Source: Bacteroidetes bacterium QH_10_64_37
GTDB taxonomy: Bacteria > Bacteroidota > Rhodothermia > Rhodothermales > Salinibacteraceae
Direction: 5' to 3'
NCBI GenBank assembly: GCA_003023105.1
Contig: PXSZ01000081.1
Location: forward strand, 1 to 11,835
DNA: 11,835 nt
The position numbers and the translations under genes were made by a program. The notes under the pieces were generated by a model, which made no database searches, was not told where the DNA came from, and saw nothing but the letters and a program-made list of their open reading frames with translations. Below are positions 5,874-11,325 of the stretch, piece by piece. How positions within the stretch are numbered: the stretch's first letter is position 1; every line of letters starts with the position of its first letter.

Positions 5874-5938
5874 ACCTGCGTTGAGGGTGCTTAGTGCGGT
5901 GTGTACTAGTCTACGGGGCGGAAGAAGATCTTTGGTCG

Positions 5939-6030
5939 TGTGTTGCGTATTGCGTATCTCGTATTGCGTAATTCGTATTGCATATTCCAGGTTGTGGTGG
6001 CTTTACGCAATACGCACTACGCAATGTACA
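5939..6030. repeat. Inverted pair of heptanucleotide repeat arrays between metG and mtnN
   Basis: From about 5946 the plus strand reads as consecutive 7-mers of consensus CGTATTG, with variants CGTATCT, CGTAATT and CATATTC, for about six units. After a G/T-rich spacer (about 5988-6002), the reverse-complement unit (TACGCAA or TACGCAC) recurs three times to 6025. A perfect 12-bp inverted repeat, CGTATTGCGTAA at 5960-5971 and its complement at 6003-6014, results. The RNA from either strand could fold into a long hairpin with a 31-nt loop. It sits downstream of metG and upstream of mtnN. Period and arrangement are seen directly; function is unknown. Confidence 0.8.
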
Positions 6031-6100
6031 CCACCAACCTTCCCTGAAGAGGATGCCGTCAGAGTATGGCTGTCTCGAGACCAGGAGCATCTGTCGGCCC

Positions 6101-8368: not shown

Positions 8369-8695
8369 TCAGTTGAAGCTCACCCCATCCAACGGATCCC
8401 CCTCCTTCTTCCGGAGCGCCTCCTCAGCGAACCAGGCCTCGTCGACCTCCTGCGTGGTGTCCGGCAGGTCCTCGTGGGGCTTCTCGTAGCCCTCGATGTC
8501 CTTCAGCCAGACGAGCGTCTTGGTCCGCTCCGTGCCATCCCGCGCCTCGAACTCGACATTTTCCTCCCGGGCCGCACAGGTTCCCTCCGCTTCATCGTAC
8601 ACCCCGCCGAGCTTCGGGTGGCGCAGCAGGATCCGGACGCGCTCGCCGTAGTCAAAGCGACTGTTCGTGAAGTCTTTCTCACTGTACGTTGCCAC
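8369..8695 (-). CDS. Small acidic protein of unknown function (108 aa)
   Basis: I do not recognise a family. The 108-residue product is strongly acidic and soluble, with no signal peptide or membrane segment. It contains an N-terminal stretch with Arg-rich RVRILLRHPKLGG, a central VEFEARDGTERTKTLVWLKDIEGYEKP that would suit beta strands, and an acidic, probably helical C-terminus (EVDEAWFAEEALRKKEG). The VRILLRHP and VWLKDIEGY segments suggest a compact beta-rich (SH3-like) fold, which is inference only. The start is GTG at 8693-8695: an in-frame TAA stands two codons before it and the frame contains no other Met codon. AGGA lies about 14 nt upstream, too far for a strong ribosome-binding site. 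The frame reads open with haloadapted composition and normal codon use, so a real gene is likely. It is divergent from hisB. Confidence 0.7.
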   Translation of the reverse strand: MATYSEKDFTNSRFDYGERVRILLRHPKLGGVYDEAEGTCAAREENVEFEARDGTERTKTLVWLKDIEGYEKPHEDLPDTTQEVDEAWFAEEALRKKEGDPLDGVSFN

Positions 8696-8735
8696 AATTT
8701 ATCGTTATCCTGCGTGAGGAAGTTCAGCGAACCCC

Positions 8736-8765
8736 CACGGGACCCCGTGCCCGCAGAGAAGTATA
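8736..8765 (-). promoter_or_regulatory. Candidate -10 element and adjacent dyad for the 108-aa gene
   Basis: On the minus strand TATACT (8765-8760) could be a -10 box. Its -35 region is weak. Immediately downstream, at the expected transcript start, lies the dyad CACGGGACCCCGTG (8736-8749, 6-bp perfect arms, 2-bp centre). This may be an operator or a 5' leader hairpin. The 276-bp gap also serves the divergent hisB. Confidence 0.25.
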
Positions 8766-8908
8766 AAAACCAATACCGACTCGTGCGTGTTCGAGCCCCA
8801 TGAGCCCCTCGTGAAAAGCCCCCTTCTGCGCCCCTCGATCCGAGACGCAGCAGACCTCCCCCGCAGAACTCCGTTCCCACTCCTACTCTTTCCCTTATGC
8901 CTTCCTGA

Positions 8909-8964
8909 TGACTCTTCACTCGTGACCCCCTCCTCGCGACTCCTCCCTCGTGACTCTTCGACAA
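8909..8964 (+). repeat. Degenerate heptanucleotide array immediately upstream of hisB
   Basis: Eight consecutive 7-mers, consensus TGACTCT or TCACTCG with C/T substitutions, can be laid end to end from 8909 to 8964. Because alternate units resemble each other more, a 14-bp superperiod is also visible. The array ends 7 bp before the hisB ATG (8972). The whole stretch from about 8815 is unusually pyrimidine-rich on the plus strand. There is no Shine-Dalgarno sequence. Confidence 0.65.
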
Positions 8965-8971
8965 GCGATTC

Positions 8972-9580
8972 ATGTCCGAACCCTCCTTCCCGCCCCGCAT
9001 GGCCACCGTCGAACGCACCACCGCCGAAACGGAGGTTGCAATTGATCTGACCCTCGACGGGGATGGCACCTACGACGTGGACACCGGCGTCGGGTTCTTC
9101 GACCACATGCTCAATCTCTTCGCCAAGCACGGCAGCCTCGATCTTACGGTGCAGTGCGACGGAGATTTGGAGGTGGACGATCACCATACGATCGAGGACG
9201 TAGCCATTGGGCTGGGGCAGGCTGTGCGTCAGGCCCTCGGAGACAAGGCCCACATTGCCCGGTACGGACACGCCCACGTGCCGATGGACGACGCCCTGGC
9301 TCGCGCCGTGATCGACCTCTCGGGGCGCAGCTACTGCCGCCTGGACGCCTCGTTCGAGCGCGGCCACGTTGGGAATTTCTCGACGGAGATGGTGGAGCAC
9401 GTGTGGCGCTCCGTCGCCGACCACGCCCGCTGCACCCTGCACCTGACCGTCCTCCACGGCCACAACGCCCACCACAAGATCGAGGCCCTCTTCAAAGCCG
9501 CCGCCCGGGCGCTGCGAGCCGCCGTCCGCCGCCACCCCGATCACGCCGAGGTCGCCTCGACGAAGGGCACACTCTCCTGA
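8972..9580 (+). CDS. hisB: Imidazoleglycerol-phosphate dehydratase (monofunctional)
   Basis: A 202-residue, Mn-dependent enzyme of histidine biosynthesis converting imidazoleglycerol phosphate to imidazoleacetol phosphate. Landmarks are RTTAETEV (15-22), TGVGFFDHML (38-47), the metal-ligand segment DDHHTIEDV (69-77), and the mirrored second site HGHNAHHKIEALFKA (162-176), all with histidines and acidic ligands intact. Length fits the monofunctional form (about 195-200), without the N-terminal histidinol-phosphatase domain of enterobacteria. The ATG at 8972 is chosen; an in-frame ATG at 8999 would remove nine poorly conserved residues and is also possible. It is the first gene of hisB-proC-hisH. 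Its leader is a heptamer array. Confidence 0.95.
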   Translation: MSEPSFPPRMATVERTTAETEVAIDLTLDGDGTYDVDTGVGFFDHMLNLFAKHGSLDLTVQCDGDLEVDDHHTIEDVAIGLGQAVRQALGDKAHIARYGHAHVPMDDALARAVIDLSGRSYCRLDASFERGHVGNFSTEMVEHVWRSVADHARCTLHLTVLHGHNAHHKIEALFKAAARALRAAVRRHPDHAEVASTKGTLS

Positions 9581-9652
9581 TTTCGGGTCTTGGACTGGGG
9601 ACCCTGCGTGTTGAGGGGGACGCGTGCCGCCTTCCAGATGGTCTTCTCTTTC

Positions 9653-9690
9653 CCAACCTTCAACGTTCTAACGTTCCAACCTTCCAACGC
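9653..9690 (+). repeat. Octamer/heptamer tandem array immediately upstream of proC
   Basis: Five end-to-end units of consensus CCAACSTT (S is C or G) with period 8 (one unit is 7 bp) run from 9653 to 9690. The array stops 7 bp before the proC ATG at 9698. It contains two AACGTT palindromes. The remaining part of the 117-bp hisB-proC gap (9581-9652) shows no hairpin or start signal. Confidence 0.7.
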
Positions 9691-9697
9691 AAACCCA

Positions 9698-10516
9698 ATG
9701 CTTTCAGACGAAACGGTGGCCGTGATCGGCGCCGGCAACATCGGGCGTGCCCTCATCGGAGGCATGATCAGCAGCGAACTGATCGACGCCGAGCACGTGA
9801 TCGCTACACGGCGCACGGCCTCGGCCCTCGACGAGATGGCGGAGGAGTTTCCGGGGCTCCGCACCACGACCGACAACGTGGCGGCGGTGCAGGACGCCTC
9901 CCTCATCCTGCTCACCATCAAGCCCCAGAGCCGCGCCGAGGTGATTACGAACATCCGGGACCACGTGGAGCGGGACGTGCTCGTCATCAGCGTCCTCGCC
10001 GGCATTACCACCGAGCGGCTGCAACTCGGCTTCGGGCAGGATCAACCCGTGATCCGGGCCATGCCCAATACCCCCGCTCTCGTGGACGCCGGGGCGACGG
10101 CCCTCTCCGCCGGCACCTACGCCACGGACGAGCACCTGGAGAACGCGCAGTCCATCTTCGAAGCGGTCGGCGATGCGGTCGTCGTTCCCGAGGAGCACAT
10201 GGACGCCGTGACGGGCCTCTCCGGCAGTGGACCCGCATACGTCTACATGTTCATCGAGGCGCTTACCGACGCGGGCGTCAAACAGGGCATGTCGCGGACA
10301 GACGCCTCGAAGCTCGCGGCGCAGACCGTGTACGGCGCCGCCAAGCTGGCCATCGACACCGGCAAGCATCCCGCCATCCTGCGCGACGAGGTGACCACGC
10401 CCGGCGGCACGGCGATCGCCGCAGTCTCGTCGCTCGAAGAACACGGCCTCCGCACGATGCTCATCAATGCCGTGGGCACCGCCACGCAGCGCTCGGAGGC
10501 ACTGAATGAAGAATGA
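9698..10516 (+). CDS. proC: Pyrroline-5-carboxylate reductase
   Basis: A 272-residue NAD(P)H-dependent reductase performing the last step of proline synthesis. The N-terminal Rossmann motif is VIGAGNIGRALIGGM (about 9-23). LTIKPQ, SVLAGIT, IRAMPNTPALVDAGATAL, the substrate-binding LSGSGPAYVYMFIEALTDAGV and DEVTTPGGTAIAAVSSLE follow in the family order. Length matches the usual 265-280. The ATG at 9698 starts the protein six residues before the first beta strand, as in homologues; the frame is open upstream to a TTG at 9590, but that extension is non-conserved and covers the repeat array. The last codons and stop (around 10504-10516) read as a near-tandem GAATGAA/GAATGAG pair. The stop overlaps an ATG of the hisH frame (ATGA). 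Proline is also a compatible solute in many halophiles, but that role here is inference. Confidence 0.95.
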   Translation: MLSDETVAVIGAGNIGRALIGGMISSELIDAEHVIATRRTASALDEMAEEFPGLRTTTDNVAAVQDASLILLTIKPQSRAEVITNIRDHVERDVLVISVLAGITTERLQLGFGQDQPVIRAMPNTPALVDAGATALSAGTYATDEHLENAQSIFEAVGDAVVVPEEHMDAVTGLSGSGPAYVYMFIEALTDAGVKQGMSRTDASKLAAQTVYGAAKLAIDTGKHPAILRDEVTTPGGTAIAAVSSLEEHGLRTMLINAVGTATQRSEALNEE

Positions 10517-10524
10517 GGGCAGTT

Positions 10525-10567
10525 GCGAGCGGCGACCCTCGAGTTTCGAATCAAGCCCGCCGCTCGC
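10525..10567. repeat. 10-bp perfect inverted repeat between proC and hisH
   Basis: GCGAGCGGCG (10525-10534) and its exact complement CGCCGCTCGC (10558-10567) are separated by 23 bp, beginning 8 bp after the proC stop. The transcript could form a strong GC-rich hairpin. No U-run follows, so an intrinsic terminator is unlikely; an intercistronic stability or folding element is an alternative. Confidence 0.55.
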
Positions 10568-10608
10568 TCCGCTCATTCGAAATTCGTCACTCGCAATTCG
10601 AAACTGCT
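10560..10608 (+). repeat. Heptanucleotide array flush with the hisH start codon
   Basis: Seven end-to-end 7-mers run from 10560 to 10608, the clearest being ATTCGAA (twice) with variants ATTCGTC and ACTCGCA. The unit consensus is ATTCGNA. The last unit abuts or overlaps the ATG at 10609. The array is within an open frame continuous with hisH and overlaps the right arm of the inverted repeat. No Shine-Dalgarno sequence is present. Confidence 0.7.
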
Positions 10609-11262
10609 ATGGTCACCATCATCGATTACGGCATCGGCAACCTGCGCTCCATCGAGAAGGCGTTCGAGACGGTGGGAGCCGCGGTCCACCGCACCGACGA
10701 CCCTGATGCAGTGGCGAGTGCCGAGCGACTCGTGCTGCCGGGCGTGGGGGCGTTCCGCGCGTGCATCGATGAGATTCGCCGCCGAGACTTAGAACGGCCC
10801 ATCCAAGAGGCCATCCACCGAGGCGTGCCATTTCTCGGCGTCTGCGTGGGGATGCAGCTCCTGTTCGAGACGGGCTACGAGAAGGGCGAGCACGAGGGCC
10901 TCGGGATTCTTCCCGGCCACGTTGCGCATTTTCGGGAGACGGACGTCGAAATGCCTAAGGATCTGTCGGTTCCCCACATGGGCTGGAATGCACTTGACCC
11001 CACTCGTGAGAGCCGTCTCTTAAAGGGTCTGGGGGAGGCCCCGTACGTCTATTTCGTCCACTCCTACCACCCCGTCGCGGAGGAGACCGGCGACGTGCTT
11101 GCCACCACAACCTACGGCCACACGTTTCCGTCCGTCGTCCACCGCGAGAACGTGTTCGGCGTGCAGTTCCACCCCGAAAAGTCGCAGGCCGCCGGGCTGG
11201 GACTCCTGGAGAATTTTGCCACACTCCCAACATCGCATCAGCGCGAACGCGCGGTCTCGTAA
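10609..11262 (+). CDS. hisH: Imidazole glycerol phosphate synthase, glutamine amidotransferase subunit
   Basis: A 217-residue class I glutaminase that feeds ammonia to HisF, making imidazoleglycerol phosphate (the HisB substrate) and AICAR. Landmarks are IIDYGIGNLRSIEKAF at the N-terminus, LVLPGVGAF (oxyanion-side loop), FLGVCVGMQLLFE with the nucleophile Cys79, HMGWNAL, YFVHSYHP and FGVQFHPEKSQ with His188 and Glu190 completing the triad. The frame is open 32 codons upstream to an ATG at 10513 overlapping the proC stop, but that stretch encodes only repeat-derived sequence. The ATG at 10609, giving MVTIIDYG, matches the family. hisF and hisA are not in the window; hisH is the last plus-strand gene. 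Translational coupling with proC through the ATGA overlap is possible but unproven. Confidence 0.95.
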   Translation: MVTIIDYGIGNLRSIEKAFETVGAAVHRTDDPDAVASAERLVLPGVGAFRACIDEIRRRDLERPIQEAIHRGVPFLGVCVGMQLLFETGYEKGEHEGLGILPGHVAHFRETDVEMPKDLSVPHMGWNALDPTRESRLLKGLGEAPYVYFVHSYHPVAEETGDVLATTTYGHTFPSVVHRENVFGVQFHPEKSQAAGLGLLENFATLPTSHQRERAVS

Positions 11263-11325
11263 CGCCCACACACCGGCGGAACGGCTCCGGGGGGAGCAGC
11301 CGGCGGTGGATCCTCGTCGGCTGTG

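What the first reader, a model, noticed from the sequence alone, without database searches (positions are those of the whole stretch)
8909..10608. Three consecutive start codons (hisB, proC, hisH) each preceded by a different short tandem repeat of period 7-8
The three genes of the plus-strand cluster lack Shine-Dalgarno sequences. Instead each carries a degenerate 7- or 8-bp tandem array ending within 0-7 bp of its ATG. The units differ (TSACTCS-like, CCAACSTT, ATTCGNA), so the arrays are not copies of one element but share design: short period, about 40-55 bp, placed at the start codon. A fourth, CGTATTG-type array lies upstream of mtnN. Heptanucleotide repeats (STRR) are known in cyanobacteria and similar short repeats occur in other lineages. 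A systematic link with translation starts in this lineage would be notable. They could be unstructured ribosome landing zones, phase-variable spacers, or products of slippage or template switching.
Basis: partly seen in the sequence, partly recalled or inferred. Interest (0 to 1): 0.7.

Follow-up and report, generated by a model that had tools for sequence, protein, structure and literature searches.

The report
Heptamer/octamer repeat pairs between genes
The short repeats before three genes of this salt-loving bacterium are real, but they belong to a wide population of 7- and 8-base repeat arrays that sit between genes, often as mirror-image pairs with a fixed orientation, and they are not special to translation starts.

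Summary
The arrays are real: dinucleotide shuffles of the 60 bp before each start give p=0.0005 for hisB (lag 14), 0.0005 for proC (lag 8) and 0.001 for hisH (lag 14; lags 5-10 p=0.061). In a third of the closest held genome (G001, about 93% identical), period-7 and period-8 arrays are intergenic and far above shuffles. They do not mark start codons: 35 of 546 start, 51 of 494 stop and 15 of 280 mid-gap windows carry one. Shine-Dalgarno motifs are at background there, so their absence is normal. mtnN and hisH arrays are such pairs; hisB and proC arrays stand alone. Units turn over: the hisB array differs by 42 bp (6x7) from a close relative, and one junction holds different units in different relatives. 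The layout matches Xanthomonas/Nostoc G-rich heptamers (PMC4692102), but with many units, 8-mers too, and mostly no G-quadruplex motif. New variant of a known kind, probably slippage-built; the strict polarity is open.

The parts
8909..8956 (+). single C-type array (14 = 2x7 bp, TGACTCCTCCCTCG) before hisB, in the divergent gap
   Evidence: TRF score 54; lag-14 p=0.0005; the array region is 42 bp longer in the close relative G001:C44; no hairpin, z -0.9
9653..9689 (+). single C-type 8-bp array (CCAACGTT) before proC
   Evidence: TRF score 46; lag-8 p=0.0005; same array in L001, similar by eye in L002 where it is below threshold; no hairpin, z 0.1
10518..10551 (+). left (5') arm of the inverted pair between proC and hisH
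   Evidence: pairs with 10575-10608 in the predicted RNA fold of 10517-10608, -37.2 kcal/mol, z -3.48, 2 of 200 shuffles as good
10573..10600 (+). right (3', C-type) arm before hisH, unit TCACTCGAAATTCG
   Evidence: TRF score 42; lag-14 p=0.001, lags 5-10 p=0.061
5935..5989 (+). 5' arm on the + strand (G-type, TTGCGTA) of the mtnN-metG inverted pair; 62 bp upstream of mtnN, which is on the - strand
   Evidence: lag-7 score 22; TRF 5943-5986; hairpin of 5931-6040 z -5.46
6004..6025 (+). 3' arm on the + strand (C-type, TACGCAA) of the mtnN-metG inverted pair
   Evidence: TRF 3.1 copies; lag-7 score 11

Best explanation
The three arrays are local examples of a population of intergenic 7-bp and 8-bp slippage arrays, dense in some Salinibacteraceae-like genomes. 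SHOWN in the sampled relative: they are intergenic, stand out at periods 7 and 8, hug the ends of neighbouring genes, are scarce in divergent gaps, draw on a limited set of unit families, and often come as inverted pairs in which the G-type strand of each arm runs from the gene towards the middle. SHOWN at one locus: a length change of whole units between close relatives. INFERRED: arrays grow by replication slippage; the second arm is made or refreshed by inverted template switching (the 3' end of the G-type strand folds back and copies itself), which would give the fixed polarity; selection mainly removes arrays from coding and promoter DNA. Closeness to an ATG is then a by-product of an array filling the gap between two genes. 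No dedicated role in translation is needed.
For: G001 gaps, lag segments observed/shuffled at T>=10: period 7 86/1.3, period 8 59/1.7; lags 5, 6, 9, 10, 11, 13 give 4, 8, 2, 4, 0, 7 against 1.3-4.0. In called coding DNA no lag-7 or lag-8 segment reached T>=14 in G001 (245-kb part), G004 or G007. G-type arrays start within 10 nt of the 5'-side gene in 22 of 40 co-directional cases (3.9 expected), C-type end within 10 nt of the 3'-side gene in 20 of 54 (7.9 expected); in convergent gaps, where that gene shows its stop, 5 of 8 (1.1) and 6 of 7 (2.1). Inverted partner at score >=10 (3.1% in shuffled flanks): G-type right 29, left 0 of 53; C-type left 28, right 0 of 65. Opposite-type neighbours: 24 G-then-C, 0 C-then-G, always equal period. 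hisB array 42 bp longer in C44. Units within one mismatch between regions: 241 pairs against 48.6 (7-mers), 176 against 35.4 (8-mers) with letters shuffled within units. Spacers of 11 same-unit pairs are unrelated, so the pairs do not look like copies of one element.
Against: Plain slippage predicts neither the strict polarity nor a vocabulary shared between loci. 8-mer arms are no more complementary to their own partner than to others (p=0.43), against a simple fold-back copy. Whole-unit length change was seen at one locus only. Polarity is not without exception at weaker cut-offs: at score >=9 (7.4% in shuffled flanks) 1 G-type array has a left and 1 C-type a right partner, and in stretches of G005/G006 chosen because they bear arrays the counts are 4 right/1 left and 1 right/6 left. 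Density differs between close genera without explanation: sampled parts of G005 and G007 are about at chance, and sampled G154/G202 pieces hold 1 array in 69 gaps. In divergent gaps no hugging was seen (9 arrays).
Confidence: 0.62

Rival explanations
1. Translation-start elements: the arrays are unstructured, G-poor ribosome landing zones or protein sites that replace Shine-Dalgarno sequences, as proposed for TAACTGA repeats.
For: C-rich sense strand in 31 of 32 array-bearing co-directional start windows; hisB and proC arrays lie 8-15 bp before ATG and are not in hairpins.
Against: Stops carry arrays at least as often as starts, convergent gaps most of all; starts without arrays are also C-rich; Shine-Dalgarno motifs are at background in genes generally; orthologous hisB-proC-hisH junctions in L005, L006, L020, L007, G154 and G202 have no array at the threshold used, though the window's own hisB and hisH arrays also fall below that threshold. 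My start calls are approximate, which may lower the start counts.
Confidence: 0.1
2. Intercistronic or 3'-end RNA hairpins: the inverted pairs fold in mRNA just after stop codons and protect or attenuate transcripts, as REP elements do (recalled).
For: Placement right after stops; 19 paired spans in co-directional gaps have mean z -3.5 against -0.2 in 80 array-free gaps, though spans were trimmed to the arrays and controls were whole gaps; the proC-hisH gap folds with z between -1.9 and -3.5 in 5 of 13 genomes (window, C44, L002, L003, L008).
Against: In the other 8 of 13 genomes the proC-hisH z lies between -0.3 and 0.7; the C44 metG-msp pair has z -0.7, as has the array-free window gap; hisB-proC shows no hairpin in most genomes. 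Only 29 of 53 G-type and 28 of 65 C-type arrays have a partner. No U-tract follows the hisH arm.
Confidence: 0.17
3. End healing: broken DNA ends in gaps between genes are extended at their 3' ends with G-rich 7-8 nt units and then joined, leaving head-to-head arrays like an interstitial telomere fusion.
For: The polarity is that of a fusion (24:0); equal period in both arms even where units are not complementary; unrelated spacers; unit families shared among loci.
Against: No Ku in 9 genomes searched; no RVT_1 match in G001; no break or healing event was seen; no known enzyme for it here.
Confidence: 0.07
4. A mobile repeat of REP or MITE type spread by a RAYT-like transposase.
For: Same unit at many loci; inverted symmetry.
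Against: Spacers of 11 same-unit pairs unrelated; no Y1_Tnp match in array-rich G001, a metagenome assembly of unknown completeness; unit and period vary from locus to locus.
Confidence: 0.04

Closest known systems
GGGAATC / GGGGA(C/T)T heptamer repeats of Xanthomonas and Nostoc (Rehm et al. 2015, PMC4692102; abstract, outline, sections 10, 13, 16 and search passages read)
   Same: Intergenic G-rich heptamer arrays; in two Xanthomonas genomes 70 and 75 close pairs in convergent orientation; G strand near the stop on the sense strand or before an ORF on the antisense strand; scarce between divergent genes; length differs between close species.
   Different: Here many unit families, 8-bp as well as 7-bp units, a G3+ quadruplex motif in only 9 of 120 arrays, and a junction occupied by different units in relatives.
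TAACTGA direct repeats of Beggiatoaceae (MacGregor 2015, PMC4679880; abstract, outline and parts 1-2 of 5 of the results read)
   Same: Intergenic heptamer arrays near start codons without a ribosome-binding site; reported in some Bacteroidetes too.
   Different: One fixed unit, mostly forward and just before starts; here many units, inverted pairs, and stops at least as rich as starts.
Cyanobacterial STRR heptamers (recalled; heptanucleotide repeats of Calothrix are mentioned in a passage of PMC4692102)
   Same: Heptamer tandem repeats.
   Different: Not compared here by sequence.
REP/BIME elements (recalled)
   Same: Inverted, intergenic, often after stop codons.
   Different: No conserved spacer among same-unit pairs and no RAYT-type match in G001.

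Membership tests
Xanthomonas/Nostoc G-rich heptamer repeats | unit GGGAATC or GGGGA(C/T)T | tested here: not met
   Main 7-mer clusters in G001 are ATGCGTG-, ATTGCGT- and ATTTTGG-like; neither unit is among the 60 of 69 consensus units printed, the nearest being one GGGAATG; window units differ too
Xanthomonas/Nostoc G-rich heptamer repeats | intergenic, scarce in coding DNA and between divergent genes | tested here: met
Xanthomonas/Nostoc G-rich heptamer repeats | close pairs in convergent orientation (G strands facing each other) | tested here: met
   24 of 24 opposite-type neighbours; 57 to 0 partner sides at score >=10, the two counts partly describing the same pairs
Xanthomonas/Nostoc G-rich heptamer repeats | near the stop on the sense strand or before an ORF on the antisense strand | tested here: met
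Xanthomonas/Nostoc G-rich heptamer repeats | G-quadruplex capacity | tested here: not met
   G3+ motif in 9 of 120 arrays; the looser G2+ motif in 50 of 120
TAACTGA start-codon repeats | unit TAACTGA | tested here: not met
   not among the 60 of 69 seven-bp consensus units printed, nor among the listed cluster heads
TAACTGA start-codon repeats | most sets end a few nt before a start codon | tested here: not met
   start windows 35 of 546, stop windows 51 of 494
REP/RAYT elements | copies share one palindromic core and loop | tested here: not met
   spacers of 11 same-unit pairs unrelated: mean local score 4.00 against 4.11 shuffled
REP/RAYT elements | RAYT (Y1_Tnp) gene in the genome | tested here: inconclusive
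   matches in 5 of 9 genomes, none in array-rich G001, a metagenome assembly of unknown completeness
Phase-variable simple sequence repeats | unit-number variation that switches expression within a clone | not testable with these tools
   one whole-unit difference between two relatives; no population or expression data

The most novel reading that the evidence does not exclude
Head-to-head 7/8-bp arrays with near-absolute G-strand-inwards polarity are scars of end healing on a circular bacterial chromosome: both 3' ends of a break in a gap between genes are extended with G-rich units, templated by other arrays or by an unknown activity, and then joined, a bacterial counterpart of interstitial telomere fusions.
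Probability: 0.07. Interest if true: 0.85.

Novelty: new variant of a known kind. Interest (0 to 1): 0.45.

Why it matters
It shows that the layout described for one Xanthomonas/Nostoc heptamer family (intergenic, gene-hugging, G strands facing each other) recurs in a distant lineage with many different 7- and 8-bp units and mostly without quadruplex motifs. That shifts the question from the meaning of one sequence to a process that sets unit length and strand polarity, and genomes dense in arrays beside relatives nearly free of them in the sampled parts make that process testable.

Tried and rejected
Start-codon specificity: not supported by the stop, mid-gap and convergent controls. Absence of Shine-Dalgarno as a special trait: it is the norm in the sampled relative. 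One mobile element: not supported. NHEJ through Ku: no match in 9 genomes. Reverse transcriptase: matches in 4 of 9 genomes, none in G001, so no link with array density was seen. A conserved hairpin at orthologous junctions: mixed, proC-hisH z <= -1.9 in 5 of 13 genomes and about 0 in the other 8. The CGTATTG unit across the phylum: 101 of 198 genomes have a hit with up to one mismatch, but by eye only three stand out (62, 35 and 36 hits in G001, G154, G202), the rest being near the level of the backwards control. The proC loci as a survey of other lineages: 61 mostly Firmicutes loci give 42/12 at lag 7 and 26/13 at lag 8 but also 24/7 at lag 10 and 34/8 at lag 11, so nothing specific to 7 or 8; 10 other Rhodothermota-like loci give 5/1 and 5/1, mostly from L013 and L015. 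Mapping the mtnN junction in G001 gave only arrays and short matches, not the gene (40 of 102 first-look candidates were scored). The G005 sample stops just short of arrays listed, so its chance-level result understates that genome. Paper searches on Salinibacter repeats, heptameric or heptanucleotide repeats and the Xanthomonas motif showed no report of these arrays in Salinibacter or its relatives; several lists were capped (25 of 6,124, 20 of 3,971, 12 of 267), and only the open-access library is covered.

Full report
What the window is. The best relative by the proC protein is L001 (100%), contig PXTN01000044.1 of the metagenome-assembled Bacteroidetes bacterium QS_3_64_15, genome G001. 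Over 8600-11300 the DNA is 93% identical, so the window comes from another strain or species; its own genome is not held. Other relatives are Salinibacter, Salinivenus and related assemblies. Salinibacter belongs to Rhodothermota, Salinibacteraceae. G154 has contigs of 3,551,823 and 35,505 bases, the sizes I recall for Salinibacter ruber DSM 13855; no call names it.

The observation. TRF finds 8909-8956 (period 14), 9653-9689 (period 8), 10573-10600 (period 14) and 5943-5986 (period 7). Against 2000 dinucleotide shuffles of the 60 bp before each start: hisB lag 14 p=0.0005 and lags 5-10 p=0.44; proC lag 8 p=0.0005; hisH lag 14 p=0.001 and lags 5-10 p=0.061; the other eight starts p>0.06 on both. 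The arrays end 15, 8 and 8 bp before ATG. hisB's start at 8972 is supported by orthologue starts. By the lag-7/8 threshold used below, only the proC array and the mtnN pair of the window count; hisB and hisH fall below it.

Genome-wide test. I sampled 838 kb of G001 (about 32%; the first 20 kb at most of contigs 1-37 and 60-79, and contig 44), 400 kb of G004, 396 kb of G005 and 400 kb of G007, and called genes with a simple hexamer caller of my own, whose starts are approximate (it puts hisB's 27 bp too far in). In G001, lag-7 and lag-8 segments at T>=10 number 86 and 59 against 1.3 and 1.7 in shuffles; lags 5, 6, 9, 10, 11 and 13 give 4, 8, 2, 4, 0 and 7 against 1.3-4.0. G004 gives 22/0.3 and 11/1.0. 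G005 (2/1.3, 1/1.7) and G007 (3/2.3, 3/0.0) are about at chance in the sampled part, although G005 as a whole has 54 CGTATTG-type hits. In called coding DNA no lag-7 or lag-8 segment reached T>=14 in G004, a 245-kb part of the G001 sample, or G007.

Not a start-codon feature. Array-bearing 60-bp windows in G001 (score >=9): before starts 35 of 546 (shuffled 3), after stops 51 of 494 (shuffled 5), mid-gap 15 of 280 (shuffled 0; gaps of 180 bp or more); co-directional starts 32 of 398, divergent starts 3 of 148, co-directional stops 37 of 398, convergent stops 14 of 96. In gaps under 120 bp the start and stop windows overlap, so the counts are not independent. Stop versus start p=0.024, convergent stop versus divergent start p=0.0004, co-directional stop versus start p=0.61. 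Gaps with arrays at T>=11: 74 of 460 co-directional, 11 of 62 convergent, 9 of 75 divergent. Shine-Dalgarno 4-mers: 41 of 646 genes against 39 of 646 in a control window.

Inverted pairs with strict polarity. Of 120 merged arrays, 53 are G-type, 65 C-type and 2 even. A reverse-complement partner within 130 bp (score >=10; 3.1% in shuffled flanks) lies right of 29 and left of 0 G-type arrays, and left of 28 and right of 0 C-type arrays; by class 22/0 and 0/20 co-directional, 5/0 and 0/6 convergent, 2/0 and 0/2 divergent (right/left). At score >=9 (7.4% in shuffled flanks) there is one exception of each type. The two counts partly describe the same pairs. Ignoring complementarity, neighbouring arrays are G-then-C 24 times, C-then-G never and C-then-C 3 times, and the 24 have equal period (13 of 7-7, 11 of 8-8). 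In other genomes (right/left): G004 5/0 and 0/5; G003 3/0 and 0/3; stretches of G005/G006 chosen for their arrays 4/1 and 1/6. G-type arrays hug the gene on their 5' side and C-type arrays the gene on their 3' side, in convergent gaps as in co-directional ones; the 9 arrays in divergent gaps do not.

In the window. The mtnN-metG and proC-hisH gaps hold such pairs, with predicted RNA hairpins of -40.9 (z -5.5) and -37.2 kcal/mol (z -3.5); the hisB and proC arrays stand alone (z -0.9 and 0.1).

Turnover. Between the window and G001:C44 the hisB leader is nearly identical except that C44 carries 42 bp (6x7) more array. The metG-msp junction has no array in the window, a GTCGGCA-like pair in C44, a CGTATTT-like array in L003, a CAACGTTC-like array in L004, a CTCGCCC-like array in L008 and 17 bp without an array in L005 and L006 (unit names read by eye). 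hisB-proC and proC-hisH carry no detected array in L005, L006, L020 and L007, nor in G154 and G202. RNA folding at proC-hisH is z -1.9 to -3.5 in 5 of 13 genomes (window, C44, L002, L003, L008) and -0.3 to 0.7 in the other 8.

Origin. Unit consensuses fall into a limited set: 69 seven-bp arrays in 11 clusters and 51 eight-bp arrays in 4 clusters by single linkage; between-region pairs within one mismatch are 241 (48.6 expected) and 176 (35.4 expected). Spacers of 11 CGTATTG-type pairs are unrelated to each other. 7-mer arms match their own partner better than swapped ones (p=0.0002), 8-mer arms do not (p=0.43). Ku: 0 of 9 genomes. Y1_Tnp: 5 of 9, not G001. RVT_1: 4 of 9, not G001. These absences are weak because G001 is a metagenome assembly of unknown completeness.

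Known work. Rehm et al. 2015 (PMC4692102; abstract, outline, sections 10, 13 and 16, and search passages) describe the same layout for GGGAATC repeats in Xanthomonas, with 70 and 75 convergent pairs in two genomes, and could not identify a role. MacGregor 2015 (PMC4679880; abstract, outline and results parts 1-2 of 5) suggests translational regulation for TAACTGA repeats before starts. PMC4060949 was searched for five terms only. The fold-back model recalls hairpin-primed repeat elongation by DNA polymerases in vitro (recalled, no call).

Verdict. A real and widespread intergenic feature, wrongly tied to start codons, best filed as a new variant of the Xanthomonas/Nostoc kind. Slippage is supported at one locus; the fold-back step and the absence of function are inference; the strict polarity is the open point.

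Noticed in passing
window 8755-8820: The hisB leader holds a block conserved in relatives that lack the array there: AAGTATAAAAACCA-like, TGCGTGTTC and GTGAGCCCCTCGTGAAAA-like (seen in L005, L006, L020, G154, G202, more weakly in L004; the last motif not found in L008). It may be a promoter or leader element.
   Followed up: partly
L013 6997-7074: An array of 7-bp units (ACCCGCAACCCAAA) lies in frame inside the hisH coding sequence of a Great Salt Lake assembly, adding a repeat peptide: an array inside a gene.
   Followed up: partly
G001 whole genome: mtnN was not found in G001 by DNA search; only arrays and short matches came up (40 of 102 candidates scored). It may be missing from the assembly.
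   Followed up: no
G005 and G006 (Salinivenus): CGTATTG-type hits are numerous (54 and 64) although the window's orthologous junctions and the sampled parts of G005 show about none; arrays seem clustered in certain regions.
   Followed up: partly
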